A stretch of 64,000 nucleotides of DNA from Levilactobacillus lanxiensis. Lineage in GTDB: Bacteria; Bacillota; Bacilli; Lactobacillales; Lactobacillaceae. Location: the NCBI RefSeq assembly GCF_016861655.1, contig NZ_BOLN01000003.1:248001-312000 (forward strand), given 5' to 3'. The position numbers and the translations under genes are program-made. Every line of letters starts with the position of its first letter. Positions within the stretch are counted from its first letter, which is position 1. Below the pieces are notes generated by a model. The model did not search any database. It saw only the letters and a list, made by a program, of their open reading frames with translations, and was not told the origin of the DNA. Shown here in pieces: positions 29,683-62,760 of the stretch.

Positions 29683-29969
29683 GGGCTAAACAGGTGTCTC
29701 CAGCGCCTCCGGGTCGGTGAAAATGCCCGCTGACTGTCCGTTCCCGGCGGTGGGCTCAAGTCGACCTGCTATGGGGTCGGTTTCAGCCTGAGAAGCGGGC
29801 TTCCACCTCGACTTTGAGCCAAAGAGCGGTCTCAAAGGTCGTCCCGTGGGCTAGGCTGAGTGGAAAACCTCAGCCAAGACCACCGACACAGCTGGCCAAC
29901 TTGGCCCACCTCTGGTCACTAACATCCACCATGCCTTCACCGCCCCTGCGGCTGACACACGTTTAACCC
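29683..29969 (+). repeat. structured intergenic element, class A, copy 1
   Basis: Inverted ends begin GGGCTAAAC and end GTTTAACCC. Inner stems CAAGT/ACTTG and GGCTGAG/CTCAGCC and the conserved CCGACACAGCTGG box are present. Lies between divergently arranged genes. Confidence 0.85.
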
Positions 29970-30516
29970 GCTAACCAACTGTCATGAGCTGTTTGCTTAT
30001 CTTCGTTATGTTGTGTTGAGTTGGTGTTTATTTGTTGGGTATTGATTAACCTTGCGTAATTTTGGCTGGCTTAGTATTAAGCGACTAATTAATAATTGCC
30101 GTCAGTTGCCCTAAACCAGCTATTATTAATTATTGAAACATTTCTAACCCATGGCTGGCAAGGGGCTGGGGTGAATTGACTGGTCTTTTTGTTAATTATT
30201 AGGATTTTAATTGGGATAATTGATAATTACTTGGCATCCGGGGAAGCTAATCTTTTACAGGCAAGTATGGTACAATCAAAGTACATAGAGGAATTATCTG
30301 GTGATACCAAACTGGACGTGGTTTGGCCAGGCTAACATCACTGTGCGCATGGAGGTTAATCATTGGTTTTTTAGCCGTGATTGTCGAAATAGTCGCGGCG
30401 GTTCTAAAAATCTTTGATTGAGCGAATGACGATATCGAGGAGGAGCCGTGGTGGCGGCTTTTCCTTTTTCTTTTCCACATCGTGCGGCATCTAATCAATA
30501 TAGGAGTGAACAAATT
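29970..30516. other. AT-rich intergenic leader region
   Basis: No protein gene seen. AATTAATAAT/ATTATTAATT form an inverted repeat around 30088-30135, a -10-like TACAAT is at 30271-30276, and a GGAGCCG/CGGC hairpin with T-rich tail is near 30442-30470, just upstream of the small gene at 30517. This may be a long 5' leader. Confidence 0.4.
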
Positions 30517-30783
30517 TTGCATATCTTTAGAGATGAAAACGGAATTCGGTTGGTCGTTTCGCACCAACTCGGCACTTATGCCGTCCGTTTCGCTGACTAC
30601 GCCCCTGAACAAGAATTCGTGAACTATGAATTAAAGCGTGATCGGCATGGCCGTTATCATCTGACCATTCAAAAAACTAACCTAACCGAATTGAGTCAAC
30701 CCGTCTTCAAAAAAGAATTAGTCTTTGGCGATCTCGGCGACAGTTTGACGCCAGTCGAAGGCGTTACGTTAATGTTGATTTAA
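30517..30783 (+). CDS. small conserved protein of unknown function
   Basis: An 88-residue soluble protein starting from TTG (LHIFRDENGIRLVVSHQLGTYAVRF), with AGGAG ten bases upstream. The longer frame upstream runs through a hairpin and lacks a site. Pattern suggests a small beta-rich domain; I do not recognise it. A terminator follows directly. Confidence 0.6.
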   Translation: MHIFRDENGIRLVVSHQLGTYAVRFADYAPEQEFVNYELKRDRHGRYHLTIQKTNLTELSQPVFKKELVFGDLGDSLTPVEGVTLMLI

Positions 30784-30789
30784 TTTTCG

Positions 30790-30822
30790 AGCTTCGCAGT
30801 CGTTGGACTGTGGGGCTTTTTT
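30790..30822 (+). terminator. terminator
   Basis: GCAGTC/GACTG(T) hairpin with outer AGC/GCT and a run of six T. Confidence 0.7.
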
Positions 30823-30906
30823 ATTTGCCGTGAACCCTTTGACTTGCTAAATGTAACTATGAGTATTACAGTATAATCGTAGACAAAAACGAAAAGGGGT
30901 ATTCAT

Positions 30907-31822: not shown

Positions 31823-31888
31823 GCGCTCAAAATTGTGTGGGTGCCACTGCGGCCACCAGGTGCTCCCTGCCTGTGGGAAACTGGTTTG

Positions 31889-32126
31889 GTGAGCGAAAAC
31901 GGTGGTGGACGGGCCGTTCCCGGCGGTGGCTTCAAGCTGACCTGCTGTGGGGCCCGGCTCCAGCCTGAGAAGCGGTCTTCCGCCTCGCCTGAAAGCCTGG
32001 AAACCCGCCAGTCTCCCAGGTCGGCCCATGCTCTAAACTGAGAAAAGCACTCAGTTAAGACCATCGACACAGCTGCCCAGCTTGATCCACCTCTGGTCAC
32101 TGACACGGGCCATCGTTTCACACGCT
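31889..32126 (+). repeat. structured intergenic element, class A, copy 2
   Basis: Core stems CAAGCTG/CAGCTTG and AACTGAG/CTCAGTT. It is nested in a larger inverted repeat: GGCCACCAGGTG at about 31852 versus CACCTGGTGGCC at about 32155, extending outwards to the terminator-like AATACCGT on both sides (31789 and about 32194). Confidence 0.85.
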
Positions 32127-32360
32127 AGGTGATGGCCACAGGGGTTCCACACCTGGTGGCCGGCGCTCTGGCGACAGGAGGAGAGAAAAAATACCGTCGG
32201 CGGTTACCAGCTTCATTGAACTTGCCTTTGACATGGATCTTAGACGGGAAGCGAGTGCAGTAAGCACAGACGCCCAATTAACTCGACCGCCATCTCCAAA
32301 CCAGTATCGACGGGGAGCTCACAGTAAAAACCAAAACCAGAAAAGTGGATTGGTGCGTGG

Positions 32361-32659
32361 GGTTACGCCAGTGTTAGCCGCAGGGATGGTGAAAATGGGC
32401 CAGTCGTGGTAGTGACCAGAGACGAGCCAAGGTGCCCGGCTGTGTCGATGTTCTTAGCTGAGTGATTTTCTCAGCTTAGAACATGGGACAACCTTTGAGA
32501 CCGCTTCTCAGGCTCAAAGTTGAGGTGGAAGCCCGCTTCTCAGGCTGGAACCGACCCCACAGCAGGGCACCTTGAGCTCGTCGCCGGGAACGAACGCGAC
32601 CAGGCCCATTTTCACCATCCCGGAGGCGATGGCACTGTCACAACCGCCGTACCTAACCC
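32361..32659 (-). repeat. structured intergenic element, class A, copy 3
   Basis: Reverse orientation. Ends carry GTGTTAGCCGCAGGGATGG and its complement; outer stem GGTGAAAATGGGCC/GGCCCATTTTCACC; long stem CAAGGTGCCC/GGGCACCTTG. Confidence 0.87.
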
Positions 32660-32697: not shown

Positions 32698-32726
32698 TTG
32701 CAAACGCTTACAGCCTATGATACTAT
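32698..32726 (+). promoter_or_regulatory. promoter of the candidate large RNA
   Basis: -35 TTGCAA (32698-32703), exactly 17 bp, -10 TACTAT (32721-32726). The predicted start is about 32733. Confidence 0.65.
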
Positions 32727-32732
32727 TATGGT

Positions 32733-33316
32733 GCGGAAAGGAATTAAGAGTTGTGACGTTCCACAGCATCAAATTGCATCAATGTTTTAAAACCGATTTC
32801 CGCTTCAACGTGAGTCAGGTTTTAAAGTAGCTCCGAGATACTGAAAGATAGAGACAACTCCGATAAACCTTCTAACGAACTCTAGCAGTTCCAGGCAATG
32901 GTTTCACAGATTCGGCTCCACAGAATCAGGTACCATCAAAACTGAATAGATTTTAGACTTAGTGCTTGTAAGTAAGCGTCAAATGTTTAAAGACTAGTAA
33001 ACAGTTCCAGGTAGTAGCTAGAGCTCGGATGTTACGGTTGCAAGGATCATGCGAGGATTTTAAGTAGAATCGTTAGTAGCGTGTCTTGTGTCAGTAATGA
33101 AGGAATTAAGTTCCACTGGTAACAAGCTGAAACGGCAGCCAGAAACTAATTAAAACGATTTGTTGGCTGCGGCCGCTCGGCGAAACATTCTAGTTATGAG
33201 GCGATTAAGAATTACAATGATTACGAAACGGGAATTTAGTAGTAATCACAACCTCCTTTCCGAGAGTTAGCGGACTTCAAGTGATTTCCTAACACTAAAC
33301 TTGAAGCCCGTTTTTT
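32733..33316 (+). ncRNA. candidate ~584-nt structured noncoding RNA
   Basis: This stretch has its own promoter and a terminator (33271-33316) but no usable reading frame. Its 5' end CGGAAAGGA (32734-32742) is perfectly complementary to TCCTTTCCG (33254-33262), closing a roughly 500-nt loop. Inside are a CGGCAGCCA/TGGCTGC hairpin (33133-33170) and AGTTCCAGG twice. GCGGAAA can alternatively pair with TTTCCGC at 32797-32803. Length and paired ends resemble the very large ornate RNAs (ROOL, GOLLD) known from Lactobacillales, but I cannot confirm membership by eye. Confidence 0.5.
33271..33316 (+). terminator. terminator of the candidate large RNA
   Basis: CTTCAAG/CTTGAAG arms with outer CGG/CCG, followed by six T. 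Confidence 0.8.
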
Positions 33317-33585
33317 ATGTTCTCAGGAAGGGTACGTTCGGGTACCTCAGACTTTACAGTTTTAGTTATAGCGGTATTAATTAATGTAAACGGCCTCATC
33401 TTACCGTGTTGGTAAGCGGTCGCGCTTCCTTTTGCTCTTTGAAAACTAGGGAAAATGTTAAAGGTAAATCCTTTTAGCAAAAACTATGGGTCGTTCGGTT
33501 AGCCTCCGGACGGACCGGTTCCCGCAACTGATTCAGGGTAGTAATGTTCGGAAATTGGTGATATGAACTTTTCTGCAATCGACCA

Positions 33586-33614
33586 TTTACAGGGCGCTTA
33601 AGAAAAGGTATATT
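33586..33614 (+). promoter_or_regulatory. promoter of the phosphopentomutase-like gene
   Basis: -35 TTTACA (33586-33591), 17 bp, -10 TATATT (33609-33614). The preceding 270 bases (33317-33585) hold small hairpins but no gene I can identify. Confidence 0.6.
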
Positions 33615-33680
33615 GTTACTAGACCGAAAAAGTTTTTGGTAGAAAGTCTTACCAAAGACTGACCTAAGGAGTGAGAAATA

Positions 33681-39078: not shown

Positions 39079-39960
39079 ATGAATAAATTCACAATTGTTC
39101 ACTTATCAGATCCACAGTTATCGGCGGCCAATGGGCCACAGTACAACCAACAGCTCCCGCCGGCAGCCAAATTACAACGTATCTTTGATGACATCATCGC
39201 GCACGACCTACAGCCGGACCTCATCGTTATTAGTGGGGACCTACTGACGGCCGGCACAAGCCGCGATTATGCCAAGCTACGCGACTACTTAGCTACGCAG
39301 TCCGACCGACTGCAGGCGCCCATTCAGGTCATCTTGGGTGATCAGGACGACCGTGAGGCGTTTAACCTTGGGTATTTGGGTGAGCCGCATCAGCCGTACT
39401 ATGCCTACAAGCAGGTTTACCAGAATATGGATTTCTATTTTCTGGATTCCAAATGGGAGCCGAACAAAGAGGCCGGGTGGCTGGACCGTGAGCAATTGGA
39501 TTGGCTCAATAAAAATCTCCATCTAGCGCCACGCCGACGTGCCTTTTTGTTTCTCCATCATCCACTGGATGCGCCAGCGCTTCGGGGAATGCGGTACGCG
39601 CTCTTGCAAAATAATCGAGAGCTGTTGGCCATCCTACATGGCCACAACATCGGTGGCATCTTCGCCGGCCACCTACATTTCGGGGCCAACTATTTGGTGG
39701 ATACGACCATTCCGGTTACCACGGTAGCCTCGGCCTCGACTTACATCGATTGCCAGGATCCCCACCACCACGAGGTTCACGACGCCACCAGTTACAACGT
39801 CATCACGATTCAACGGGGGATGGCCAGCATCACCAACCATCCGCTCTACCTGGGCCAGTCCGTGATCGACACGATTGACATCACCAATACGGGCTTCGCC
39901 AAGCACCGGCCGCGGCTGACTAATCCGCGCCGGGCGGGCAATGGCCTGCCACTAATTTAA
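39079..39960 (+). CDS. metallophosphoesterase (CpdA-like)
   Basis: A 293-residue calcineurin-like phosphoesterase. The metal blocks are in order: HLSDPQL (D-x-H variant, residues 8-14), ISGDLL (about 54), LGDQDDR (the usual GNHD reads GDQD), LHHPL (about 158) and AGHLHFG (about 197). Family members hydrolyse cyclic nucleotides or other phosphodiesters in the cytoplasm. Replacement of GNHD by GDQD removes the conserved His that aids catalysis, so activity may be altered. A G-rich site precedes the ATG. Confidence 0.8.
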   Translation: MNKFTIVHLSDPQLSAANGPQYNQQLPPAAKLQRIFDDIIAHDLQPDLIVISGDLLTAGTSRDYAKLRDYLATQSDRLQAPIQVILGDQDDREAFNLGYLGEPHQPYYAYKQVYQNMDFYFLDSKWEPNKEAGWLDREQLDWLNKNLHLAPRRRAFLFLHHPLDAPALRGMRYALLQNNRELLAILHGHNIGGIFAGHLHFGANYLVDTTIPVTTVASASTYIDCQDPHHHEVHDATSYNVITIQRGMASITNHPLYLGQSVIDTIDITNTGFAKHRPRLTNPRRAGNGLPLI

Positions 39961-40016: not shown

Positions 40017-40306
40017 TGCTAAACGAGTCGTTGTCATCGCCTCCGGGCTGGTGAAAACTGGGCCTGGCCGTGTCCGTTCCCGGCGGCGCGCTCAAGGCGC
40101 CCTGCTGTGGGGTCGGTTCCAGACTGAGGAGCGGTCTTCCACCTCAACTTTGAGCCAAAAGGCGGTCTCAAAGGTTGTCCCATGCTCTAAGCTGAGAAAA
40201 TCGCTCAGCTAAGACCATCGACACAGCCGGGCACCTTGGCGCGCCTCTGGTCACTCCCGCGACTGGCCCAGTTTTCCCAGTCCTGCGGCTAACACTGGTT
40301 TAGCCC
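40017..40306 (+). repeat. structured intergenic element, class A, copy 4
   Basis: Begins about 57 bases after the phosphoesterase stop. Stems CAAGG-GCCC/GGGC-CCTTG (one mismatch), AGCTGAG/CTCAGCT, small hairpin AGAC/GTCT; ends GCTAAAC/GTTTAGC. Confidence 0.87.
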
Positions 40307-40380
40307 GTGACTAGCGCCGATAACGTTGGGTGGTGTATTTTGTTTTGTCCTATCAAGTAGTGAGCAAGATATGCGTAGGC

Positions 40381-40480
40381 TGGAAGAAAACTGGGTCTGA
40401 ACGCGGGGCTGGTCGTTCCCTGCGGCTGACACTGGTTTAACCCGTGACTAGCGCCAATATCGTTGGATGATTATTTGGCT
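40381..40480 (+). repeat. remnant of a class A element end plus flank
   Basis: CTGCGGCTGACACTGG, TTTAACCC and the flank GTGACTAGCGCC repeat the right end and flank of copy 4 (40282-40320), so this is a local duplication or an abortive copy. Confidence 0.7.
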
Positions 40481-40681: not shown

Positions 40682-40880
40682 AGCCGGAGGCAGCCGGGGA
40701 TGGAGACGGCTGTGTCGGTGGTGTTGGGCCGGTGGGCTGCCGGCCTTACAGCACGGGACGACTTTGGAAACTCGCGGGCCGCAGTGAGGTTTCAAAGCGA
40801 GGTGGAGGACCGCTCCTCAGGCCGGAACCGTGCCCCACAGCAGGCGGAATCCCTGGAGGCCGCAGGCGACCACGTTTCGC
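40682..40880 (-). repeat. structured intergenic element, class A variant, copy 5
   Basis: Reverse orientation. CCGGGGAT/ATCCCTGG long stem (one G-T pair), GGCCGG/CCGGCC hairpin and CTTTGGAAA/TTTCAAAG internal stem replace the class A arms with different but still paired bases. Confidence 0.85.
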
Positions 40881-41111: not shown

Positions 41112-41840
41112 ATGAATCCTGAAGAATTTCGTGCCGCGCTGTCGGCGCAAGGCATCGAATTAAACGCAACACAGCAACAACAATTTGCTGACTATTATCA
41201 GTTCTTGGTAGCGACGAACGAACACGTCAATTTGACGACCATTACTGCGGAGCCCGAAGTCTACTTGAAACATTTTTACGACTCGTTGACCCCCGCTTTT
41301 TACGTGCCCGCAATCCGGACCGAACCGCTCACGCTCTGTGATGTCGGCGCCGGGGCCGGGTTCCCGTCACTGCCACTGAAAATCGTCTTTCCACAGCTCC
41401 AGGTGACCATCGTGGATTCCTTAAACAAGCGAATCACGTTCTTAAATGATCTGGCCGCCAAGCTGAACCTGACCGGCGTGGCCTTTCATCACGCCCGGGC
41501 CGAGGAATTCGGTGGCAAACGGGCGCCATACCGCGAGGGCTTTGACCTGGTCACTGCCCGCGCCGTGGCCCGCATGTCTGTCCTGAGTGAACTGTGTTTA
41601 CCCCTGACCAAGGTCGGTGGGCAGTTCGTGGCCTTAAAAGCCGCTCAGACCGAAAACGAATTGGCCGTTAGCCAGACTGGGATTACCACGTTAGGTGGCC
41701 AGGTGGCTGGAGATTTTGCGTTCAATTTGCCAGAATCCAACGACCCCCGGCACATCGTGGTCGTGGACAAGGTCAAGCACACACCCAAGCGCTACCCGCG
41801 TAAAGCTGGCACGCCCAACCGGGAGCCGTTAGAAGATTAA
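41112..41840 (+). CDS. rsmG: 16S rRNA m7G527 methyltransferase RsmG
   Basis: A 242-residue SAM-dependent methyltransferase that modifies G527 of 16S rRNA. The glycine-rich SAM site [20 protein letters not shown] (about 77-96) and [15 protein letters not shown] are clear, as are [12 protein letters not shown] and the LNLTTI N-terminal motif (EHVNLTTI). AGGGAG precedes the ATG. It stands in its usual place upstream of noc and parAB, near the replication origin. Confidence 0.95.
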
Positions 41841-46448: not shown

Positions 46449-46660
46449 CGTGCGGGAGCTGGTCGCTCCCTGCGGCGGTCCTGGGGCTGGAACGCTGGGG
46501 GGAGGACGCCCGGAGCCGAAGAGCGGTCTCCGGACTTGCTTTGAGCCGCTGAGAAGCGCGTCTCAAAGTCACCATTTACGCTGCTGCGCACCGTAAATCC
46601 CCCGGCTGAGCCCCGGCCGCCTCCGGTCGCTGATGTTGCGGTTCTTTGACAACGTTGGTT
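46449..46660 (+). repeat. structured intergenic element, class B, copy 1
   Basis: Directly downstream of the DUF1129 gene. Hairpins CGGAG/CTCCG, CTTTGAG/CTCAAAG and ATTTACG/CGTAAAT; outer stem GGGGCTGG paired with the CCCCGGCC region. Confidence 0.82.
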
Positions 46661-46836: not shown

Positions 46837-46847
46837 TTGTTCTGCGC

Positions 46848-46955
46848 CGATCTCAAAGGTCGTCTCATGGCCTGAGCTGAGAAAATCGTTCAGCTAATGC
46901 CATCGGCACAATTGGCGACCTTGGACTATCTTCGGTCACGCTTGCGACTGCGCTT
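46848..46955 (+). repeat. 3' half of a class A element (truncated copy)
   Basis: Contains CTCAAAGGTCGTC, AGCTGAG/TTCAGCT hairpin and the CATCGGCACA box but lacks the 5' half. Confidence 0.75.
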
Positions 46956-47040: not shown

Positions 47041-47245
47041 GGGCCAAAACTGTACTAGCCGCAGGGATGGTGAAAATGGGTTCAGCCGTGGGACTTCCCT
47101 TAGTGGTGGGCTTGGCCGCTTAGGGAAGTGCTATCTTTGAGACGCGGTCCTGGCGGCTCAAAGTAAGTTCGGAGACCATACTGTGGCTCCGGACATGTGC
47201 CCACCGTGTCCCAATCCATTTTCACTATCCCGGAGGCAAGTTGTT
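47041..47245 (-). repeat. structured intergenic element, class B, copy 2
   Basis: Reverse orientation. Outer stem GGTGAAAATGG/CCATTTTCAC; ACTTCCCT/AGGGAAGT hairpin in place of the ATTTACG arms; CTTTGAG/CTCAAAG kept. Confidence 0.82.
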
Positions 47246-47298
47246 TGTGCAACACATGTTGGGGTCACTCACTATGTCAGGCGAACGATCCACCAAGA

Positions 47299-47496
47299 GC
47301 CGGAGGAGGCCGGGTGCGGAGCCAGCTGTGTCGGTGGTGTTAGACCGGGTGGGCTTGCCCGGCCTTACAGCACGGGACGACTTTGGAAACTTGCGGGCTG
47401 GGCGAGGTTTCAAAGCGAGGTGGAAGCCCGTCCCTCAGGCTGGAACCGTTCCCCACAGCCGGTGGAGCACCCGGCAGCCGCAGGCAGCAATTTAGC
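47299..47496 (-). repeat. structured intergenic element, class A variant, copy 6
   Basis: Reverse orientation. Long stem CCGGGTGC/GCACCCGG; CTTTGGAAA/TTTCAAAG; conserved CCGACACAGC and CTGTGGGG boxes. Confidence 0.85.
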
Positions 47497-48522: not shown

Positions 48523-50157
48523 ATGGAACGCATTAGATTAGTGCTGCATAAGCGCAGCGCCCAAGTATTTGGCTTGTTTACCATTGTCGGGGCTTTCATC
48601 ATGACCTTCTGTTCGTACACCTCCCCGGCTTACTACTTCGACGTGTCGCCGGACAACAACGCCTTCTTCACGGTCGGCAAGGCCATGATGCACGGCATCG
48701 TGCCCTACAAGGACATTTTTGAGCAAAAGGGCCCGTACGTCTATTTCCTGCACGGGCTAGCCTACCTGGTGAGTCATCGCAGTTTCACACTGATTTTCGT
48801 GTATGAAATTGCGACGCTGGTGGCCGCGATGTACCTGGTCTACCGCATTGCCAAGTTGCTGGACGCCCATGAGTTACCGGCGCTGCTGACGGCCTTGTTG
48901 TCGCCGGTCCTGTTCCTGTACCACCCGTACTACGATTACGGCGATACCGTGGAATTTTTCACGCTGCCATTTCTGCTCTCATTGATTTATCTGATTCTGT
49001 TGCTGGACCGCCACGACCTGACCGTTAGCCATTGGTGGTACTTCGCGCAGGGCGCGCTGGTCGGCGTGGTTTTCCTGTCCAAGTACACGCTGCTGGGCGC
49101 CTGGATTGTTTTTTACCTGGTGATGCTGGTCACCCGGCTGGTCAAACGCCAATGGCGGGCGCTGGGCCAACTGATTGGCTGGAGTGCGGCGGGGTTCCTG
49201 CTGACGACGGTGCCATGGCTAGTCTACTTCCTGGCGACCAAGAGCCTGGGCGCCTTCATCAACGTCTACATTCTGTTCAACACCAAGGTGTACCTGACCT
49301 CGTCGGTGGCCTTCTTCGCCAACCTGATTCAGTCGATGGCGTTGGTGTCCCAATTTTACCTGAGCAACGTGCTGTTCTTCCTGCTGGGCGTAGTGGGGAC
49401 GCTGGTGGTGACCTTTGAACGCGGCGTCTTCCACAGTAACTTTACCCGGGGACTTTACCTGGTGGCGACGCTGGGCAGCGACCTGTTCGCCCTGTACGGC
49501 TATCAGGCTGGGGCGGTATACCAGTATTATGAATTGATTTATTTCGCGAGCTTCGTGCTGCCGTTCGCGGTCTTCTGCCAGCTGCTGTTCCGCCACCTGA
49601 GCTTGCCAAATGGGGATGACAGTTTTGCCATCCTGGCGACGCTGGTGATTGGCTGGTTCCTGGTGCTCGGCGTCAACAACAACGTGACCAACTCGAAGGT
49701 CTTTCCCAACAACGCGTCGGTCACTGAGGAGACGACCAGCGTGCCGCAACAGCCGGCCCAGGTGGACTTCGGCAATTACATGCGGCAGAGTGGCTTGCCC
49801 CTGACGCTGCTGAATTACGGGTCGATCGACATGGGCTTCTACACGGCCTCCGGGGCGGTGCCATCGACGTATTACTTCCAGAACTACAACATTGCTCAGA
49901 GTGCGGCACCCCAGATTCTGCGCTCACAGGTCGATCAGATTCGCCAGCACAAGGTCGAATGGGTCGTCCTCAACACGCCAGCCGGCAAGACGGTTCGCGA
50001 GTGGCAGGGTGGTGGCGGCCGCATTACCAGCGGCAACCTGAACCCGGGCACTAGCAAATTAGCCAAGACACTGTACCGCAATTACCTGCCGGTCGGGAAG
50101 CATACGCAGGTGTTTGAAGGGGTGAGCGTGACGTATTGGTTGTTTGAACGAAAATAA
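48523..50157 (+). CDS. GT-C-like polytopic membrane glycosyltransferase (A)
   Basis: A 544-residue membrane protein with about 11-12 helices. After the first helix, SPDNNAFFTVGKAMMHGIVPYKDIFEQKGPYVYFLHGLAYL is the PMT/ArnT-like first extracellular loop with the catalytic-type acidic residue (SPD). A C-terminal soluble domain (about 400-544: LLNYGSIDMGFYTASG...WVVLNTP) faces outside. Such enzymes transfer sugars from lipid carriers to proteins or wall polymers. It is strongly similar to the protein at 52697 and follows a secreted Lys/Ser-rich protein. The acceptor is inferred, not shown. Confidence 0.75.
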   Translation: MERIRLVLHKRSAQVFGLFTIVGAFIMTFCSYTSPAYYFDVSPDNNAFFTVGKAMMHGIVPYKDIFEQKGPYVYFLHGLAYLVSHRSFTLIFVYEIATLVAAMYLVYRIAKLLDAHELPALLTALLSPVLFLYHPYYDYGDTVEFFTLPFLLSLIYLILLLDRHDLTVSHWWYFAQGALVGVVFLSKYTLLGAWIVFYLVMLVTRLVKRQWRALGQLIGWSAAGFLLTTVPWLVYFLATKSLGAFINVYILFNTKVYLTSSVAFFANLIQSMALVSQFYLSNVLFFLLGVVGTLVVTFERGVFHSNFTRGLYLVATLGSDLFALYGYQAGAVYQYYELIYFASFVLPFAVFCQLLFRHLSLPNGDDSFAILATLVIGWFLVLGVNNNVTNSKVFPNNASVTEETTSVPQQPAQVDFGNYMRQSGLPLTLLNYGSIDMGFYTASGAVPSTYYFQNYNIAQSAAPQILRSQVDQIRQHKVEWVVLNTPAGKTVREWQGGGGRITSGNLNPGTSKLAKTLYRNYLPVGKHTQVFEGVSVTYWLFERK

Positions 50158-50265: not shown

Positions 50266-50295
50266 AACACGTTTCAGAAAGTAAGGTTGGCTAAA

Positions 50296-50492
50296 TTTTT
50301 CCGTTCCCGGCGGCGGGCTCAAGGTTCCCTGCTGTGGGGTCGGTTTCAGCCTGAGGGGCGGGCTTTCACCTCAACTTTGAGCCTTAGAAGCGGTCTCAAA
50401 GGTTGCCCCATGCTCTAAGCTGAGAAAAATCGCTCAGCTAAGACCATCGACACAGCTGGGAACCTTGACCCGCCTCTGGTCACTCAGATTTG
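50296..50492 (+). repeat. structured intergenic element, class A, copy 7
   Basis: Long stem AAGGTTCCC/GGGAACCTT (both arms changed together relative to copy 3); AGCTGAG/CTCAGCT; AGCC/GGCT; the outer inverted ends are not clear. Confidence 0.85.
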
Positions 50493-50611
50493 CGCGCTTA
50501 CTTTCGGTAGTTTGGTGGGGTGGCAAGTAGTTCACTGATTCATACGCTTTTTTTGAAATTCTTGCTTACTTTAAGTAACTAGAAATATCCACTTTATGAA
50601 TATATTTGTTA

Positions 50612-50649: not shown

Positions 50650-50789
50650 CATGTATAAACTTGTTTTTAGTTAGGGGTCAAATCTTGAAAAATGGCGCCT
50701 TGATGTTTCTATAAATCGGGACTAGGGTGGAGGCGTAATCAACACCACAACTGGCTTGATTGAAATTTACATATTTTAGGAGGAATTTG

Positions 50790-51953
50790 ATGAAGAAAGT
50801 TTATGGATATGCTTTAGCTTTGGTTGCCACCTTAACTTTTGGTGGGGCATTGGCAACGTCTGCAAATGCTGCGGATGATGGTTCTGCAACTGGCACGCCT
50901 GCTGTGACAAACAGCGCAACTTCTGATAAACCGGCAACGGCTACTCCTGGGGAAACAACTACTGACACTACGGGAGCCGATAAGACTGGTACGGACGGTG
51001 ATAGCGATGTAGCTGCTGGCGCTGATGGTGGTGACACAGTAGTTGACCCTAACAAGGACGCTGATACTACAACTGGCACTGGCACTGGCGATGGTACTGG
51101 CACTACCACACCAACTAAACCTAGCGATGGCGCTGGTACTACAACCGGCACTGGCGATGGTACTGACACTACCACACCAACTAAACCTAGCGATGGCGCT
51201 GGTACTACAACCGGCACTGGCGATGGTACTGACACTACTACACCAACTAAACCTAGCGATGGCGCTGGTACTACAACTGGTACTGGCGATGGTACTGGCA
51301 CTACCACACCAACTAAACCTAGCGCTGGCGCTGGTACTACAACCGGCACTGGCGATGGTACTGACACTACCACACCAACTAAACCTAGCGATGGCGCTGG
51401 TACTACAACTGGTACTGGCGATGGTACTGGCACTACCACACCAACTAAACCTAGCGATGGTACTGGTACCACAACCGGAACTACTACAACTAACCCTGGT
51501 ACCACTACTACAACCCCAGCAACCACTAACAACACCGCAACAACCCCAAGCTCCAGCAGTGTGGCTTCCTCAAGTTCCAGCCAAGTAGCTGCCACCAGCA
51601 GTTCCAAGCCGGCTACTAAGACGACCAAGACGGTCAAGAAGACTACTAAGAAATCAGCCAAGAAGACGGTTGCCAAGGCGAAGAAGATTCGTGCGCAGAA
51701 GACCTACACCAAGAATTCACGCCGCGTTCAGTTCAAGAAGGCCGTTAAGGGTAGCAAGGTCGTTTTGAAGAACAGCAAGGGCCAAGTCGTTAAGACCCTT
51801 AAGGTGACGAAGTCTGGGAAGCTCAGCATCAAGTTGAGTAAGAAGCAAGCCAAGAAGTTGAACCGCACCAAGAAGAACAAGCACTACTTCACGGTCACGG
51901 TGACGCAGAAGGGCTACAAGCCTTACACCATCAAGTACACGATCAAGGCTTAA
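50790..51953 (+). CDS. secreted repeat protein with Lys-rich C-terminal domain (B)
   Basis: A 387-residue protein with signal peptide MKKVYGYALALVATLTFGGALATSANA. A Thr/Gly/Asp-rich region includes six 22-residue repeats (residues about 98-229, core DTTTPTKPSDGAGTTT), then a Thr/Ser/Pro linker. The basic C-terminal domain (about 300-387: RAQKTYTKNSRRVQFKKAVKGSKVVLKNSKGQVVKTLKVTKSGK...KGYKPYTIKYTIK) is shared with proteins A and C. There is no LPxTG. The repeats look like a glycosylatable stalk. AGGAGGAAT precedes ATG at 50790. Confidence 0.8.
   Translation: MKKVYGYALALVATLTFGGALATSANAADDGSATGTPAVTNSATSDKPATATPGETTTDTTGADKTGTDGDSDVAAGADGGDTVVDPNKDADTTTGTGTGDGTGTTTPTKPSDGAGTTTGTGDGTDTTTPTKPSDGAGTTTGTGDGTDTTTPTKPSDGAGTTTGTGDGTGTTTPTKPSAGAGTTTGTGDGTDTTTPTKPSDGAGTTTGTGDGTGTTTPTKPSDGTGTTTGTTTTNPGTTTTTPATTNNTATTPSSSSVASSSSSQVAATSSSKPATKTTKTVKKTTKKSAKKTVAKAKKIRAQKTYTKNSRRVQFKKAVKGSKVVLKNSKGQVVKTLKVTKSGKLSIKLSKKQAKKLNRTKKNKHYFTVTVTQKGYKPYTIKYTIKA
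51081..51476 (+). repeat. six tandem 66-bp coding repeats
   Basis: Six in-frame units of 66 bp (22 residues) with only a few substitutions (Asp/Gly and Asp/Ala exchanges). The DNA is almost identical between units, indicating recent expansion or homogenisation and a likely length polymorphism. Confidence 0.9.
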
Positions 51954-52638: not shown

Positions 52639-52668
52639 AGACGTGGCAGAACCACGTCTTTTCTTTTC
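52639..52668 (+). terminator. terminator after surface protein C
   Basis: AGACGTGG-cagaa-CCACGTCT stem followed by TTTCTTTTC. It is the same position and style as the terminator after protein A. Confidence 0.75.
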
Positions 52669-52696
52669 TCATTTTTTAGGAAAAGGAGTCGGGTCC

Positions 52697-54346
52697 GTGT
52701 ACTTACGAATCAAGGAAAAAATGCAGCGCCACGAAACTCAGTATTTCATGTTACTCGCGTTCATTGGGATTTTTATGATGGCGTTTTGTTCCTACACCTC
52801 ACCAGCGTATTACTTCGACACCTCGCCGGATAACAACGCCTTCTTCACGGTCGGCAAGGCCATGATGCACGGGATTACGCCGTACAAGGACATCTTTGAA
52901 CAGAAGGGGCCCTACGTGTACTTCTTACATGGGTTGGCCTACCTGGTCAGTCACCGCAGCTTCATCCTGATTTTCGTGGTGGAAATCGCGGTGCTGGTGG
53001 CGGCCATGATCTTAACGTTTAAGATTGCCCGGGTCATGAAATTAGCCGAGCTACCGGCCTTTCTGGTGGCGATGCTCTCGCCCATGCTGTTTCTCTACCA
53101 TCCCTACTACAATTACGGGGACACGGTGGAGTTCTTTACGCTACCGTTATTGCTGTCGCTGATCTACCTGATTTTTCTGCTCGACCAGCACCAGCTAACG
53201 GTCAGTCCGTGGTGGTTCTTCGCGCAGGGGTTATTTGTCGGGATCGTTTTCCTGGCCAAATACACCCTGCTGGGGGCGTGGATCGCCTTTTACCTGGCCT
53301 ATGGCGGCTATTTGTTGGTCAAAAAGCAGTGGCGGTTACTGGGCCAGCTTGTCCTCTGGAGTGGGGCGGGTTTCCTGCTGGCGACGGTGCCGTGGTTGAT
53401 CTACTTCCTGGCGACCGGGTCGTTGGGTTCCTTTATTAATGTCTATATTTTATTTAATACCAAAGTTTATATGACCTCATCCGTGTCATTCTTTTCCAAC
53501 TTGATTCAATCGACTATCTTGGTGGCCAATTTCTACCTGAGTGACGTCTTTTTCTTCCTGTTGGGGGTCGGTGGCACGCTGCTGATTCTGTTCCAACGGA
53601 CGATTCTGAAACGCCGCCTGACGCGGGTGCTATACCTGTTGGTCTTTCTGGGGACCGACCTGCTGGCGCTTTACGGCTACCAGACGGGCTCACTTTACCA
53701 GTACTATCAGTTGGTCTACTTCGCCTTCTTCGTGGTGCCATTTATTTATTTCCTAAACCTATTCTTCAGCTGGGTTCGGCTCCCAGCCGTGGACGATCCG
53801 TTTATCATTTTAAGCACCCTGGTACTCAGCTTTTTCCTGGTGCTCGGGGTGAATGACAACGTGACGGTCTCCCGGCTATTTCCGAACAATGCGGCGATTA
53901 CCAAACGCAGCACGCGCAAGCCGCAACAGCCCGCGCAGGTGGAGTTCGGGAACATCATGCGCCAGCAGTCCGCACACCCAACGCTGTTAAATTATGGGTC
54001 AATCGACATGGGCTTCTACACGGCGGCCGATGCCGTGCCGACCACCTATTATTTCCAAAATTATAATATCCCAGAGAAGGCGGCCCCCCAGATTCTGCGG
54101 TCCCAACGACGCGTGATTCAGCGGCACCAGGTCCAATGGGTCGTCTTGAACACGCCGACCAAGCAATCCGTGCGCGAATGGGAAGGGAACAAAGAAATTC
54201 CCGGCCGCATTTCCAGCGGGAACCTGAACCCCGGCACGTCCAAGCTGGCGAAGTCGCTCTACCGGCATTACCGGCTGGTCAAGGTGCATCGCCAGGTCTT
54301 TGAACAGGTCGATGTGAAGTACTGGCTGTTTGAACGAAAGGGGTAA
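52697..54346 (+). CDS. GT-C-like polytopic membrane glycosyltransferase (B)
   Basis: A 549-residue paralogue of the protein at 48523, matching in helices, the SPDNNAFFTVGKAMMHG loop and the C-terminal LLNYGSIDMGFYTAAD domain. GTG at 52697 is chosen (AAAAGGAG eight bases upstream); the frame opens earlier within the terminator. It lies seven bases before the next membrane protein, so the two probably form one operon. The likely task is extracytoplasmic sugar transfer; donor and acceptor are unknown. Confidence 0.75.
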   Translation: MYLRIKEKMQRHETQYFMLLAFIGIFMMAFCSYTSPAYYFDTSPDNNAFFTVGKAMMHGITPYKDIFEQKGPYVYFLHGLAYLVSHRSFILIFVVEIAVLVAAMILTFKIARVMKLAELPAFLVAMLSPMLFLYHPYYNYGDTVEFFTLPLLLSLIYLIFLLDQHQLTVSPWWFFAQGLFVGIVFLAKYTLLGAWIAFYLAYGGYLLVKKQWRLLGQLVLWSGAGFLLATVPWLIYFLATGSLGSFINVYILFNTKVYMTSSVSFFSNLIQSTILVANFYLSDVFFFLLGVGGTLLILFQRTILKRRLTRVLYLLVFLGTDLLALYGYQTGSLYQYYQLVYFAFFVVPFIYFLNLFFSWVRLPAVDDPFIILSTLVLSFFLVLGVNDNVTVSRLFPNNAAITKRSTRKPQQPAQVEFGNIMRQQSAHPTLLNYGSIDMGFYTAADAVPTTYYFQNYNIPEKAAPQILRSQRRVIQRHQVQWVVLNTPTKQSVREWEGNKEIPGRISSGNLNPGTSKLAKSLYRHYRLVKVHRQVFEQVDVKYWLFERKG

Positions 54347-56203: not shown

Positions 56204-57382
<1,179 letters not shown>

Positions 57383-57393
57383 AACCGTTCGGA

Positions 57394-57608
57394 GCGGGTC
57401 AAACTGAGCTTGGCAGCGCCTACCGGGCGATTTAAAATGGACCGGAACGCGGTGGGCAGGACGCCTCGAGCCGAAAGGCGGTCTCGGGACTTGTTTTGAG
57501 CCGAAGAACGCGTCTCAAAATCACCATTTATCACGCACACGCGCGTGATAAATCCCACGGCTGAGTCCATTTTAAACCGCCCTCACGGCTCCAACTGGTT
57601 TGACCCGC
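57394..57608 (+). repeat. structured intergenic element, class B, copy 3
   Basis: Ends GCGGGTCAAAC/GTTTGACCCGC (perfect 11 bp), outer stem TTTAAAATGGAC/GTCCATTTTAAA (12 bp), hairpins TTTTGAG/CTCAAAA and ATTTATCACG/CGTGATAAAT. It starts about 11 bases after guaB. Confidence 0.9.
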
Positions 57609-57776
57609 AACGATTTTGTTTGTGGGTTGTCGCAGCCAGGCGATTTGGCTGTGTGGTTGTATAAATTTAAATTAGACAGAAGGCTAACCGGAAATTTCTG
57701 GTTAGCCTTTTTTGAGCACCAAATCTGGGATTGACAGAGGTGTGGCGTATACTTCAGAACAAGTGAGGTGAGTGGG

Positions 57777-58065: not shown

Positions 58066-58275
58066 GGGCTAAACCCGTGTGAGCCGCAGGGATGGTGAAA
58101 ATGAGGCCAGCCGTGGGAGTTGCCTTAGCGGTTTACCGCTTAGTCAACTGCTAGCTTTGAGACGCGTTCTTCGGCTCAAAGTAAGTCTGGAGACCGGTCC
58201 CCAGGCTCCAGACGGGCGCCCACCGCGAACCGCTCTCATTTTCACCATCCTGGAGGCGCCGGAACGAAGATTAGG
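58066..58275 (-). repeat. structured intergenic element, class B, copy 4
   Basis: Reverse orientation. GGGCTAAACCCGTG start; outer stem GGATGGTGAAAATGAG/CTCATTTTCACCATCC (16 bp); AGTTG/CAACT with GCGG-ttta-CCGC; CTTTGAG/CTCAAAG. Confidence 0.9.
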
Positions 58276-59163: not shown

Positions 59164-59199
59164 TATTGGTTTAAAGATGGTTTAGTTGGTGCTGGTGCC

Positions 59200-59370
59200 T
59201 TACCGGACACGCAAATATGGCCGGAACGCTATGGGGAGGACGCCCCGAGCCGAAGGGCGGTCTCGGGACTTGCTTTGAGCCGCTGAGAAGCGCATCTCAA
59301 AGTCACCATTTATGGACGCGCCTGCGCGTCATAAATCCCATGGCTGAGCCATATTTGCGTGTCCTCTCGG
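59200..59370 (+). repeat. structured intergenic element, class B, copy 5
   Basis: Outer stem GACACGCAAATATGGC/GCCATATTTGCGTGTC (59206-59221 with 59348-59363, perfect 16 bp), hairpins CTTTGAG/CTCAAAG and ATTTATG/CATAAAT. Confidence 0.9.
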
Positions 59371-59577
59371 CGTATACTGGTTTTTAATGGCCGCGAAAGT
59401 CGTGTGAGTCAAGCTGGTGGCTACTTGGTGTGTGCTTGCCGTTTTTGGCGGCAGCGTTCACTCGCGGACTCATCCTGTGTGGTTGGCGTGGGTCACTTTC
59501 TACGTGGCCGTTCAAGTGGTGTCGCTCAGCCGCGGCTACCCGCCACCAAGCCAATGGGTGACACGCCCGCAACCAGT

Positions 59578-59597: not shown

Positions 59598-59800
59598 GAG
59601 CCGGAGGAAGCCAGGTACGGAGACGGCTGTGTCGGTGGTGTTAGACCGAGTGTTCTTCTCGGCCTTACAGCACGGGACGACCTTTGAGACCTGCGTGAAC
59701 TTCGCAGGGCTTAAAGTCGAGGTGGGAGCCTGCTTCTCAGGCGGGAACCGGCCCCACAGCAGGCGTAGTACCTGGAAGCCGCAGGCGGCCAGCCGACGCA
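59598..59800 (-). repeat. structured intergenic element, class A variant, copy 8
   Basis: Reverse orientation. Long stem CCAGGTAC/GTACCTGG; CCGAG/CTCGG hairpin; CCGACACAGC and CTGTGGGG boxes conserved. Confidence 0.87.
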
Positions 59801-59916: not shown

Positions 59917-61088
59917 AGCTAACCACTCGCGAGAAAAGCGCGCTGTTCATGGAAGGCGTCGTCACGGTCATCCTGCTGTTGATGCTGAACCTGGCGCTGC
60001 TGGTGCTGATCAGCCAAGCCATTCAGAGCAACCCCGGACTGCGGGACGGGATTTTTATCATCAAACGGTCCGTGGTCTTTGGCCCGAATCACTTTCAGCT
60101 GTGGAGCTGGGAAAATGTCTTCATTGGCTTCATGATCATCGCGGATGCCTTGGTCGTCTGGTGGCGGCTGATTCGGCGCTACCGGCAAATGCAGCTGCAT
60201 CATATCATTGAGGAGCTGCATTACATTGCCAACGGCCATTTTGACCACCGGATTCCGTTCCGGGTCAGCGGCGACGTGCAGCGGGTCGTGGATTCCGTCA
60301 ATGCCCTGGTCGATTCTGTCATTCACTCGATGGATGAGGAGCGGGCGATTGAGAAGTCCAAGGACGAGCTGATCACCAACGTCAGCCATGATATCCGGAC
60401 GCCATTGACGTCGATCATCGGCTACCTGGGTTTGATCGAAGACCAGCAGTATCACAGTCAAGAAGACGTTTTGAAATACACGCACACGGCCTTTTTGAAA
60501 TCGAAACAGATGAAGTCTCTGGTAGACGACCTGTTCGAGTACACCAAGGTCCGCCAGACGGACACGCCGCTGAGCCTGACGACCATCGACCTGGCCGCCA
60601 TGCTAGAACAGCTGGGCGCCAGCTTCGAGTTGGAGGCCCAGAAGAAGGGCATGACGATTGGCGCGGCCAGCGAGCCGGCTAGTTTAATGATGGAAGCCGA
60701 TCCTGAGAAGTTGGTCCGGGTGTTTAACAACCTGGTCTCGAATGCGCTGAAGTACGGCGATGGCGGGAAAGAAATCAACCTGCTTGCCAAGCGCGTTAGC
60801 GACAACGAGTTGGAGGTCCGCGTGACCAACGATGGTCCCAAGATTCCCAAGGAGTCGCTGGCTCTCATTTTCGAACGGTTCTACCGCGTGGAAGAATCCC
60901 GTTCCAAGGAAACTGGCGGGACCGGGCTGGGGCTAGCGATTGCCCAAAGCATCGTGGCCCTACACGGCGGGTACATCTACGTCGAATCCGACGACGACCT
61001 GACCAGTTTCGTGATTCATTTACCCGTTAAACATGATCAACCCTTGGCCATTCCGCAGCGGTTAAAAACGGCGGGAGCGGTCAACTAA
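59913..61088 (+). CDS. sensor histidine kinase
   Basis: A 391-residue membrane kinase with two helices (about 15-40 and 65-85), a HAMP-like linker (HHIIEELHYIANGHFDHRI), the H-box NVSHDIRTPLTSIIGYL (His about 155), the N-box FNNLVSNALKYG and G-boxes GTGLGLAIAQSIVALHGG. The short external loop suggests it senses within or at the membrane. I use ATG at 59913 (six G's upstream and coupled to the small ORF); a frame opening at 59871 has no site. Partner of the response regulator at 58474. Confidence 0.9.
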   Translation: MKLTTREKSALFMEGVVTVILLLMLNLALLVLISQAIQSNPGLRDGIFIIKRSVVFGPNHFQLWSWENVFIGFMIIADALVVWWRLIRRYRQMQLHHIIEELHYIANGHFDHRIPFRVSGDVQRVVDSVNALVDSVIHSMDEERAIEKSKDELITNVSHDIRTPLTSIIGYLGLIEDQQYHSQEDVLKYTHTAFLKSKQMKSLVDDLFEYTKVRQTDTPLSLTTIDLAAMLEQLGASFELEAQKKGMTIGAASEPASLMMEADPEKLVRVFNNLVSNALKYGDGGKEINLLAKRVSDNELEVRVTNDGPKIPKESLALIFERFYRVEESRSKETGGTGLGLAIAQSIVALHGGYIYVESDDDLTSFVIHLPVKHDQPLAIPQRLKTAGAVN

Positions 61089-61137
61089 AGCTGCCGGACT
61101 TTTCCGGTAACTACATAAGATAGAGGTGTTTTAATTG

Positions 61138-62460
61138 ATGAAACGTTTAAAACAAGTTGTTATGGGCTTGGTAACGGCGATGACGCTGTTTGCCGGGAGC
61201 CTCAGTACCCTTAGCGCGCCGGTCACGGCCCAAGCGGCCACGACCAGTACCAGCACCACGGTCAACCTGAAGGCCAAGGCCGGCATCGCTGTCGACGCCA
61301 AGACCGGGCAGATTCTCTACGATAAAAATAGTGATCAAGCCCTGCCAGTCGCCTCGATGACCAAGCTGTTGTCCATCTACCTGGTGCTCGATGCGGTCCA
61401 CAACGGTCAGCTGAAATGGGACCAAAAGATTACCGTGAACAAGGCTACGGCTAAGGTGGCGCAAAACACCAACCTGTCCAACGTGCCACTGCGTGCGGGT
61501 CACAAGTACACGGTCAAGGCACTGTATCAGGCTTCCTTGATTTACTCCGCCAACGGGGCCATCGAAGCCCTGGGGACGGCGGTTGCCGGGTCACCGCACG
61601 CCTTCGTAGATAAAATGCGGGCCCAAGCCAAGAAATTGGGCATGACGAATGTTAAAATTTACAACGCTTGTGGACTGACGAACAAACAAGTCGGTAAGCT
61701 GGGTTACGACAACGAGGCCGGTTCCGCCGAAAATGAATGGTCCGCTGCCGACCAAGCCAAATTGGCCGTCGCACTGTTAAACAAGTATCCAGAAGTCCTA
61801 CAAACCACCAGCGTTAAGAAGATGTGGTTTGAAAAGGGCACCAACGACGCTACCAAGATGGAAAACTGGAACTGGATGTTGAAGGGCTTGTCCGCCTCAT
61901 ACGCAAAACTTCACGTGGACGGCTTGAAGACCGGGACTTCCGACGCTGCCGGCGCCAACTTTACCGGGACCGCCAACAATAATGGCAACCGGATTGTGAC
62001 CGTCGTCTTGCACGCGGCGCACAAGTCTGAGACCGATCCGTCTCGTTTCAAGCAAACGCAGAAGATGATGTCTTACGTTTACAACAACTTCAAGACGGTT
62101 AACGTCAAGGCCGGTAGTCAGGTGACTGGCAGTAAGACGGTCAAGACCAACGATGCCAAGGAAAAGACGGCTAAGACCGTGTTGACCCAGAACCTGAAGC
62201 TGTGGATTCGTAACGACCAGGTCGCTAGCAATGTTCAATCCACCACGACGCTGAAGAGTAAGCTGACTAAGAACAAGGCTTTGGAAGCGCCCGTTGCCAA
62301 GAACACGGTTGTTGGGACCGCCAACATTTCCTTGAAGGGCGATCAACTCGGCTTCTTGGGGAATACCAAGACGACTAGCGTGCCGGTTAAGGTTACTGGG
62401 GCGGTGGAGAAGGCGAACGTCTTCGTCCGCCTCTGGCGCGCCATCGTCGCATTGTTCTAA
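61138..62460 (+). CDS. dacA: D-alanyl-D-alanine carboxypeptidase (PBP5-like)
   Basis: A 440-residue exported serine peptidase that trims the terminal D-Ala of peptidoglycan stems. The signal peptide ends near AQAA. The active-site motifs are SMTK (PVASMTKLL, about residue 75), SAN (YSANGAIE, about 138) and KTG (GLKTGTSDAAG, about 263). The C-terminal extension ends in a predicted helix (VFVRLWRAIVALF) for membrane anchoring. It follows the kinase gene by 50 bases, with GAGGTG nine bases before ATG at 61138. Confidence 0.93.
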   Translation: MKRLKQVVMGLVTAMTLFAGSLSTLSAPVTAQAATTSTSTTVNLKAKAGIAVDAKTGQILYDKNSDQALPVASMTKLLSIYLVLDAVHNGQLKWDQKITVNKATAKVAQNTNLSNVPLRAGHKYTVKALYQASLIYSANGAIEALGTAVAGSPHAFVDKMRAQAKKLGMTNVKIYNACGLTNKQVGKLGYDNEAGSAENEWSAADQAKLAVALLNKYPEVLQTTSVKKMWFEKGTNDATKMENWNWMLKGLSASYAKLHVDGLKTGTSDAAGANFTGTANNNGNRIVTVVLHAAHKSETDPSRFKQTQKMMSYVYNNFKTVNVKAGSQVTGSKTVKTNDAKEKTAKTVLTQNLKLWIRNDQVASNVQSTTTLKSKLTKNKALEAPVAKNTVVGTANISLKGDQLGFLGNTKTTSVPVKVTGAVEKANVFVRLWRAIVALF

Positions 62461-62473
62461 AAAGTGTTTTTGA

Positions 62474-62760
62474 CCGCGCCTCCGGGCTGATGAAAACTGG
62501 ACCGGGACGCTGTGGGCAGTTGCCGTTCCCGGCGGCGGATTCAAGGTGCCCTGCTGTGGGGCCGGTTCCAGCCGAAGGGCGGGCTTCCACCTCAACTTTG
62601 AGCCGAAGAACGGTCTCAAAGGTTGTCCCATGGAACTAGGCTGGGACAGAACCCCAGCCAAGTCCATCGACACAGCTGGTCGCCTTGATCCGCCTCTGGT
62701 CACTGAGACTGACCACGCTTGGTCCATTTTCACCAGCCCTGCGGCTAACACTGGTTTAGA
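62474..62760 (+). repeat. structured intergenic element, class A, copy 9
   Basis: Starts 14 bases after dacA. Long stem TCAAGGTG-CC/GG-CGCCTTGA, GGCTGGG/CCCAGCC hairpin, AGCC/GGCT, right end GCTAACACTGGTTTAG. Confidence 0.88.

What the first reader, a model, noticed from the sequence alone, without database searches (positions are those of the whole stretch)
29683..62760. A family of at least 14 structured intergenic elements not explained by known features
Copies at 29683, 31889, 32361, 40017, 40682, 46449, 47041, 47299, 50296, 57394, 58066, 59200, 59598 and 62474 share inverted ends (GGG-YY-AAAC type), conserved unpaired boxes (CTGTGGGG and CGACACAGC in class A) and three or more nested stems over 170-300 bp. 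They carry no protein and fill most large gaps in this half of the window. I do not recognise the family. It behaves like a MITE with an unusually elaborate fold.
Basis: partly seen in the sequence, partly recalled or inferred. Interest (0 to 1): 0.88.

Follow-up and report, generated by a model that had tools for sequence, protein, structure and literature searches.

The report
Polarised hairpin repeats between Levilactobacillus genes
Levilactobacillus bacteria carry many copies of an apparently undescribed, elaborately folded DNA repeat that lies between genes, nearly always points the same way relative to a close gene, and often carries a mirror copy of the DNA beside it, so it is a real repeat family although what it does is not yet shown.

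Summary
In detail: all 14 listed copies match one of three profile classes (A, B, C), plus a partial copy and a core-less remnant. Rfam has no match. The 'unpaired boxes' pair with each other. The window's genome holds about 600-750 copies by extrapolation; 32 of 34 genus genomes and at least two other genera have the family. New here: (1) stems covary almost only by Watson-Crick changes. (2) Polarity: the core's 5' end faces the nearest gene, at either gene end, in 149 of 152 copies within 150 bp of a gene, and all 55 mixed-orientation gaps point inward. (3) In the window's genome outer stems are often locus-specific: the 3' arm is an inverted copy of the 5' flank, in 17 of 107 copies reaching coding sequence; L. 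brevis class C lacks this. (4) At conserved sites sister species hold different core classes. Best reading: REP/BIME-like DNA hairpins spread and homogenised by replication or recombination, with flank-templated arms. Mobility and function are not shown; Y1 (RAYT-type) transposase does not track copies.

The parts
29683..29969 (+). class A element, upstream of the - strand gene 29040-29642; core 29738-29921
31847..32170 (+). class A core (31914-32102) seated inside outer arms that in G012 enclose a class C core
32360..32645 (-). class A element; core 32410-32593; forms an inward pair with the previous one
40017..40308 (+). class A element after gene 39079-39960; core 40074-40256
40382..40455 (+). 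core-less remnant with duplicated 3' arm, absent in G012 and G026; ends approximate
40682..40868 (-). class C element, upstream of gene 41112-41840
46449..46632 (+). class B element after gene 45697-46422
46846..46939 (+). partial class A copy
47041..47240 (-). class B element
47297..47487 (-). class C element
50276..50513 (+). class A core (50301-50485) with a locus-specific outer stem; G026 holds another core subtype between similar arms
57394..57620 (+). class B element after the IMPDH-domain gene 56243-57382
58066..58266 (-). class B element before the response regulator gene 58474; G012 and G026 have class A here
59199..59390 (+). class B element between response regulator and histidine kinase genes
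59598..59788 (-). class C element, inward partner of the previous one; the syntenic gap is only 30 bp in G003 and 56 bp in G030
62474..62758 (+). class A core (62523-62705) framed by class B outer sequence (62477-62518); outermost arm mirrors the end of gene 61135-62460; G012 has a class B and then a class A element here

Best explanation
These are non-coding repeats that matter mainly as folded DNA rather than as a particular RNA. Shown: a three-hairpin core on a long imperfect stem; covariation almost only between Watson-Crick pairs; location between called genes in every copy examined; a strict polarity near genes (core 5' end toward the gene, at either gene end); different core classes at the same site in sister genomes; and, in class A/C copies of the window's genome, outer stems whose 3' arm is often an inverted copy of the flank on the 5' side, sometimes of the last codons and stop codon of a gene. 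Inferred: when the forward strand is single (replication, repair or R-loop) it folds, and its 3' side is extended or rewritten on the 5' flank (snap-back or template-switch synthesis). This would write both stem sides at once and build mirror arms. Cores then move between sites by recombination through shared arms. A mirror arm cannot be a gene, which would keep genes off the 3' side for its length; this explains the polarity at most in part. I think the family is mainly a self-propagating or neutral DNA element of the REP/BIME kind that does not depend on a Y1 transposase. Whether hosts use it at transcription-unit borders is open.
For: Covariation (class B). Pair types, class A: 2520 WC, 9 G-T, 28 A-C, 16 other on 56 of 58 pairs; class B: 1150, 12, 27, 27 on 51 of 51; nine tRNAs as control: 179 WC, 17 G-T. 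Polarity in three samples: 76/86, 60/68, 47/50; within 60 bp of a gene 78/78, within 150 bp 149/152, beyond 34/52; 0 of 237 copies in called genes; 55 of 55 mixed-orientation gaps inward. Mirror arms: of 72 copies with a unique 5' flank, own score >=12 in 23 (32%) against 0.76% of cross pairs; 17 of 107 copies run >=8 columns into coding sequence. At two genes compared across 28 orthologues, 5 of 11 with element motifs downstream score >=12 for a mirrored gene end, 0 of 17 without. Core class differs in the leading element in 4 of 8 slots between G000 and G012. No Y1 tracking.
Against: Two of the 58 class A pairs were left out of the pair count by a 70% filter; one of them (columns 10/189) holds 35 G-T and 11 A-T. 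With all pairs class A has 46 G-T against 28 A-C, so the strand argument against RNA rests on leaving that doubtful pair out. In L. brevis 0 of 13 class C copies tested have mirror arms, yet polarity holds there (47/50), so arm writing cannot be the whole cause of polarity. On 36 class A copies with a unique flank the own 3' flank ranks first in only 13. Six of 11 element-bearing orthologues show no mirror score >=12. The A/B difference after gene 61135-62460 could come from deletion within a tandem B-A pair, since G012 holds both. No insertion or template-switch event was dated. The tRNA control is small.
Confidence: 0.43

Rival explanations
1. Transcription-unit border element: a host-used polar insulator or topological site (terminator, RNA-decay, supercoil or gyrase site) that must meet anything leaving a gene from its 5' side. 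Copies are kept by selection at both ends of genes.
For: Polarity is the same at gene 3' ends (100 v 13) and 5' ends (83 v 8) over the three samples. Among copies within 150 bp that face the gene with their 5' end, cores start at a median of 24-26 nt after stop codons in the window's genome (95 in L. brevis) and 69-86 nt before start codons. Gaps with an element number 65, 57 and 40 against 169, 152 and 154 gaps over 150 bp.
Against: At gene 3' ends terminator-like sites were found more often in the 300 bp after the core than between stop and core (11 v 5 of 34; 9 v 0 of 30; 7 v 6 of 26; unequal lengths scanned), so it does not seem to replace the terminator. Several relatives lack copies at the same genes. 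Core classes differ at one site. Two of 34 genus genomes had no match.
Confidence: 0.25
2. Classical MITE: a non-autonomous transposon with terminal inverted repeats moved by a transposase encoded elsewhere; the fold is incidental.
For: Terminal inverted repeats in full-length copies, such as the extra copy of G012 in slot 29643 (18 bp perfect); presence or absence between sister genomes.
Against: The conserved three-hairpin interior is not expected; no target duplication recognised by eye; Y1_Tnp and RVT_1 do not track copies; strict polarity. Other transposase families were not tested.
Confidence: 0.15
3. Structured regulatory RNA present in many copies, on the forward or the reverse strand.
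For: Elaborate fold with covariation; cores just after stop codons are probably transcribed. One class A pair is mostly G-T on the forward strand (35 of 46); outside it A-C exceeds G-T (28 v 9 with two pairs left out; class B 27 v 12), which on the reverse strand reads as G-T above A-C.
Against: 83 of 204 copies lie before a gene with the forward strand antisense to it; few G-T cells apart from one pair; no Rfam match; unique outer arms show no G-T excess (40 G-T, 37 A-C, 103 transversion-type).
Confidence: 0.12

Closest known systems
REP/BIME and REPIN elements with RAYT (Y1) transposases
   Same: Intergenic palindromic repeats in many copies near gene ends, inverted pairs, hairpins (recalled)
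   Different: Core of about 190 nt with three hairpins, not a short hairpin; no Y1 tracking; strict polarity at both gene ends; flank-mirroring arms
Efa-1 (EFAR) of Enterococcus faecalis, ERIC, NEMIS, BOX, RUP
   Same: Intergenic, structured, multi-copy bacterial repeats; Efa-1 is given as 163 nt with a double hairpin (PMC2267715, passages)
Quasi-palindrome / template-switch mutation
   Same: Copies sequence as reverse complement nearby, so both stem sides can change at once (PMC8794818, abstract and start of introduction)
   Different: A mutation mechanism, not a dispersed element family; no link to mirrored gene ends seen in what I read
Bacterial MITEs
   Same: Short, non-coding, inverted ends, many copies
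   Different: Conserved internal fold; no target duplication recognised; different core classes at one site; no partner transposase identified among the two families searched
Integron attC sites and IS200/IS605 ends
   Same: Work as folded single strands (recalled)
   Different: No Y1 tracking; an integron integrase was not searched for

Membership tests
REP/RAYT system | RAYT/Y1 transposase present in genomes with the repeats | tested here: not met
   PF01797 in 23 of 34; absent in G012, G002, G030, G032 (copy search saturated at 76), present in G021 and G031 (0 copies)
REP/BIME | intergenic palindromic DNA repeats, often in inverted pairs (recalled) | tested here: met
   0 of 237 copies in called genes; 55 of 72 multi-element gaps hold both orientations
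REP/BIME | short hairpin with conserved foot tetranucleotide (recalled) | tested here: not met
   about 190-nt three-hairpin core
MITE | terminal inverted repeats | tested here: inconclusive
   GGGYTAAAC-type ends in some copies; locus-specific stems in others
MITE | target site duplication | tested here: inconclusive
   none recognised by eye in slots aligned; no clean polarised insertion available
MITE | parent transposase with the same ends | not tested
   only Y1_Tnp and RVT_1 were searched; ISfinder not available
Rfam RNA families | score above gathering threshold | tested here: not met
   0 matches in the window, 0 at E<=5 in 29600-62900
Structured RNA in general | G-U pairs tolerated, more than A-C | tested here: inconclusive
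   class A 9 G-T v 28 A-C on 56 pairs, 46 v 28 on all 58; class B 12 v 27
EFAR/ERIC/BOX | sequence match | not testable with these tools
   no repeat library; R1 matched 3 of 198 genomes of the order, all in the own family, under strict filters
Template-switch product | one arm is an inverted copy of the other flank and arose in one event | tested here: inconclusive
   inverted copies shown, event not dated; 0 of 13 L. brevis class C copies

The most novel reading that the evidence does not exclude
A class of bacterial repeat whose folded forward strand primes or templates its own outer stem from whatever flanks its 5' side, so that a copy ends up clasping a mirror image of the neighbouring gene's end. 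Its spread, its nearly Watson-Crick-only covariation and part of its polarity would follow from this snap-back writing, without a transposase.
Probability: 0.3. Interest if true: 0.9.

Novelty: new variant of a known kind. Interest (0 to 1): 0.72.

Why it matters
Profile hits cover 4.4% and 3.9% of the two samples of the window's genome and 2.7% of the L. brevis sample, and my searches found no description. If the mirror arms are written by template switching, the family gives many natural records of that process and a testable case of DNA-level compensatory evolution that imitates RNA covariation, a caution for calling structured RNAs from covariation alone. The polarity rule is a sharp regularity that any account of intergenic repeats must explain.

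Tried and rejected
RNA-family match: none in the window; in 280 kb more of the genome only Ref68 and a tRNA. RAYT/Y1 and reverse transcriptase as partner genes: no tracking. Native terminator hairpins as the usual source of the outer stems: terminator-like sites between stop and core were few (5/34, 0/30, 6/26), and none of 17 orthologues without element motifs scored >=12 for a mirrored gene end. Compact C-B pairs as the only cause of polarity: single copies obey it too (<60 bp 41/41, 60-150 bp 28/32, >150 bp 5/11). Mirror arms as the only cause of polarity: L. brevis class C copies lack them. Box-pattern hits outside lactobacilli (16 of the 80 listed loci): 9 of the 16 were aligned and look like chance; 7 were not looked at. 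Secundilactobacillus similis L205 was kept by eye. The first tRNA count failed to parse and was redone. Correction made on re-checking: the argument from A-C outnumbering G-T holds only without one class A pair; I lowered the main reading from 0.45 to 0.43 and raised the RNA rival from 0.10 to 0.12. Searches for a printed description: in an open-licence library only; none found.
Full report
What is there. Repeat search, profile search and covariance models agree that the fourteen copies are real and related. A first scan shows direct and inverted families among them. Three classes can be separated: A (core about 185-190 nt), B and C. In the window the profile hits are A at 29739, 31915, 32411, 40075, 50302, 62524; B at 46480, 47057, 57417, 58082, 59199; C at 40682, 47298, 59599; plus a partial A at 46846 and a few short fragments. 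Rfam release 15 gives no match in the window at gathering thresholds and none at E<=5 in 29600-62900.

The fold. Eighteen A cores give a consensus of 58 pairs, 27 with compensatory changes. On 46 A copies from 444 kb, 97.7% of cells pair, 35 of 58 pairs have changes on both sides, the covariation score is 0.266 against 0.117 in shuffles, and sliding one side by one column drops pairing to 42-53%; the number of further pair types exceeds shuffles only slightly (32 of 500 as high). That alignment was fitted to the model. Class B: 35 of 51 predicted pairs with compensatory changes.

DNA rather than RNA. Where pairs vary they mostly switch between Watson-Crick pairs. Class A, 56 of 58 pairs: 2520 WC, 9 G-T, 28 A-C, 16 other; class B, 51 pairs: 1150, 12, 27, 27. 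The two class A pairs left out by a 70% filter are columns 10/189 (35 G-T, 11 A-T) and 123/157 (26 WC, 2 G-T, 18 other); with them G-T is 46, or about 1.7% of cells. Nine tRNAs (of ten found in the loci fetched by then; one dropped for mismatches) have 17 G-T among 196 pairs, 8.7%. So G-T is rare but the strand argument (A-C above G-T on the forward strand) depends on leaving out one doubtful pair; cells are not independent (10 of the 28 A-C come from one column), and the control is small. A reverse-strand RNA is not excluded.

How many and where. In the window's own genome (3.03 Mb, 24 contigs) all 150 candidates that the tool scored lie below E=1e-49 (the cap makes this a floor). Profile hits cover 4.4% of sample S1 (444 kb: the window and 19 stretches, six of them chosen because they held hits), 3.9% of S2 (399 kb of contig C1) and 2.7% of S3 (440 kb of L. 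brevis CD0817). S2 holds 80 hits of at least 120 nt and 98 in all, which extrapolates to about 600-750 per genome. By blastn 27 of 35 genus genomes (own included) and 0 of 23 others match; by the covariance model 32 of 34 genus genomes match, with none found in G021 and G031 (at most 76 candidates scored per genome). Under strict filters 3 of 198 genomes of the order, in 3 of 55 genera with the own one, match; the two other genera, one of which could be Secundilactobacillus, carry a three-hairpin fold in the eight loci fetched. G012 is probably L. wangkuiensis, G003 L. brevis CD0817 and G030 L. angrenensis, judged by equal contig lengths.

Polarity. With a simple codon-bias gene caller, 0 of 237 copies overlap a called gene by more than 60 bp (coding fraction 0.71-0.74). 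The 237 are model hits after removing overlaps, plus three window B copies that I added by hand. The 5' end of the core faces the nearest gene in 76 of 86 (S1), 60 of 68 (S2) and 47 of 50 (L. brevis); 33 copies without a called gene on both sides of the stretch were set aside. With the gene within 60 bp the count is 34/34, 35/35 and 9/9; within 150 bp 63/66, 51/51, 35/35; beyond 150 bp 13/20, 9/17, 12/15. Gene 3' ends give 100 v 13, 5' ends 83 v 8. Profile hits, partial ones included, confirm it: of 72 gaps with several elements 55 hold both orientations, and in all 55 every forward copy precedes every reverse one; single copies obey it at 41/41 (<60 bp), 28/32 (60-150) and 5/11 (>150). Among copies within 150 bp that face the gene with the 5' end, the core starts at a median of 24-26 nt after stop codons in the window's genome, 95 nt in L. 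brevis, and 69-86 nt before start codons.

Mirror arms. Outward of the core the stem often goes on in register and is unique to the locus. Among 107 copies of all three samples with model score >=85 and 60-nt flanks, 72 have a 5' flank unlike any other copy's. In these the own 5'/3' flanks match with score >=9 in 43 and >=12 in 23, against 6.9% and 0.76% of random cross pairings. In 17 of the 107 the match runs at least 8 columns into coding sequence, 16 of them at gene 3' ends. A stricter look at 66 class A copies: of 36 with a unique flank the own 3' flank ranks first of all in 13 and exceeds the 99th percentile of cross scores in 8. Example: at L278 the gene ends CACCCAGCTCGCCTAA and the 3' arm, reversed, reads CACCCCGCTCGTCTAA. 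Mismatches in unique arms are 40 G-T, 37 A-C, 103 transversion-type. Where the outward match is good (29 of 51 and 29 of 43 copies, family-shared stems included) it reaches a median of 66-67 nt. I followed two genes through 28 orthologues (15 of the 30 loci, 13 of the 30). By a simple motif flag 11 carry an element downstream and 17 do not (G033 at the first gene may hold an unflagged B element). The best inverted match of the gene end within 420 bp scores >=12 in 5 of 11 (G000, G012, G019; G000, G026) and in 0 of 17 (6-11). The G026 score of 13 at the second gene lies elsewhere, but its 3' flank also holds a shorter mirror of the gene end. The other six element-bearing orthologues score 8-11; one of them, G012 at the second gene, has a differently built copy that by eye mirrors the same gene end. 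L. brevis class C copies show no mirror arms (0 of 13).

Different cores at one site. In syntenic gaps of G000 and G012 the leading element differs in class in 4 of 8 slots (A/B, A/C, B/C, A/B) while side and orientation stay; at 57383 the trailing element is B in G000 and A in G012 and G026. In slot 62461 G012 holds B and then A, so deletion within a tandem pair could explain that one. At 50158 G000, G012 and G026 have similar arms but the G026 core is another subtype. At 31546 the A core of G000 sits inside arms that in G012 enclose a C core; at 62477-62518 class B sequence frames an A core. The gap at 59164 is 30, 56 and 111 bp in G003, G030 and G033 against 707 in the window.

Partners. 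Y1_Tnp is found in 23 of 34 genomes, absent from four with saturated copy searches and present in both genomes without copies. RVT_1 is found in 10 of 34, with no tracking. Other transposase families were not searched.

How it may work. Shown are the fold, the mostly Watson-Crick covariation, the polarity, the mirror arms and the class differences at one site. Inferred is that the forward strand, when single, folds and its 3' side is extended or rewritten on the 5' flank, as in template-switch mutation, which has been proposed to create and maintain hairpins (PMC8794818, abstract and start of introduction; quasi-palindrome template switching in E. coli, PMC7202029, search listing only), and that cores travel by recombination through shared arms. 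Mirror arms would keep genes off the 3' side for about their own length, which is of the order of the 150 bp at which polarity fades, but L. brevis shows polarity without such arms in class C, so host use at transcription-unit borders or an oriented insertion step must be considered. Cruciform-capable repeats of E. coli are also enriched just after stop codons (PMC6060812, abstract and passages).

Literature. The closest described repeats are REP/BIME (recalled) and Efa-1 and other families of PMC2267715 (passages), in whose passages the only lactobacillus is L. johnsonii, with a family Lac-1 said to lie in genes. PMC1590033 was seen in passages. The prokaryote MITE review PMC10969869 has no occurrence of 'lactobacill' or 'lactic acid' in its main text. 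No description of this family was found.

Noticed in passing
window 51012-51539 within ORF 50760-51953: A 66-nt tandem repeat (six overlapping 198-nt copies, 75-96% alike to the reference), that is a 22-residue repeat in a protein with no Pfam match.
   Followed up: no
window 48523-50157 and 52643-54346: Two paralogous large ORFs (blocks 71-81% alike, offset about 4177); the first weakly matches PMT_2 glycosyltransferase.
   Followed up: no
window 32700-33680: About 1 kb without a called gene between the last element and gene 33681, nearly unchanged in G012 in the part viewed; possibly a long leader or small RNA.
   Followed up: no
L103 (G015) downstream of the orthologue of L072:9591-11156: A Cas9-like start of a reading frame, recognised by eye (recalled), where close relatives of the window have elements.
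   Followed up: no
L332 (G003, L. brevis), just after the stop codon: Gene end GCAACTGGCTTAA is followed after 11 nt by its inverted copy with one mismatch, directly before a C-type core: a short mirror on the 5' side.
   Followed up: partly
L314, L307, L312, L302, L315, L306, L266 (L. brevis): Seven compact inward C-B pairs with about 77-107 bp between the cores, as if C and B travel as one unit there.
   Followed up: partly
L376-L383 (two other genera of the family): Related hairpin families with the three-hairpin plan; in L376 and L378 the outer stem is a perfect run of up to about 26 bp.
   Followed up: partly
L075 9179-9309: Rfam Ref68 (Lacto-3) small RNA, 91 bits, in the window's genome.
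   Followed up: no
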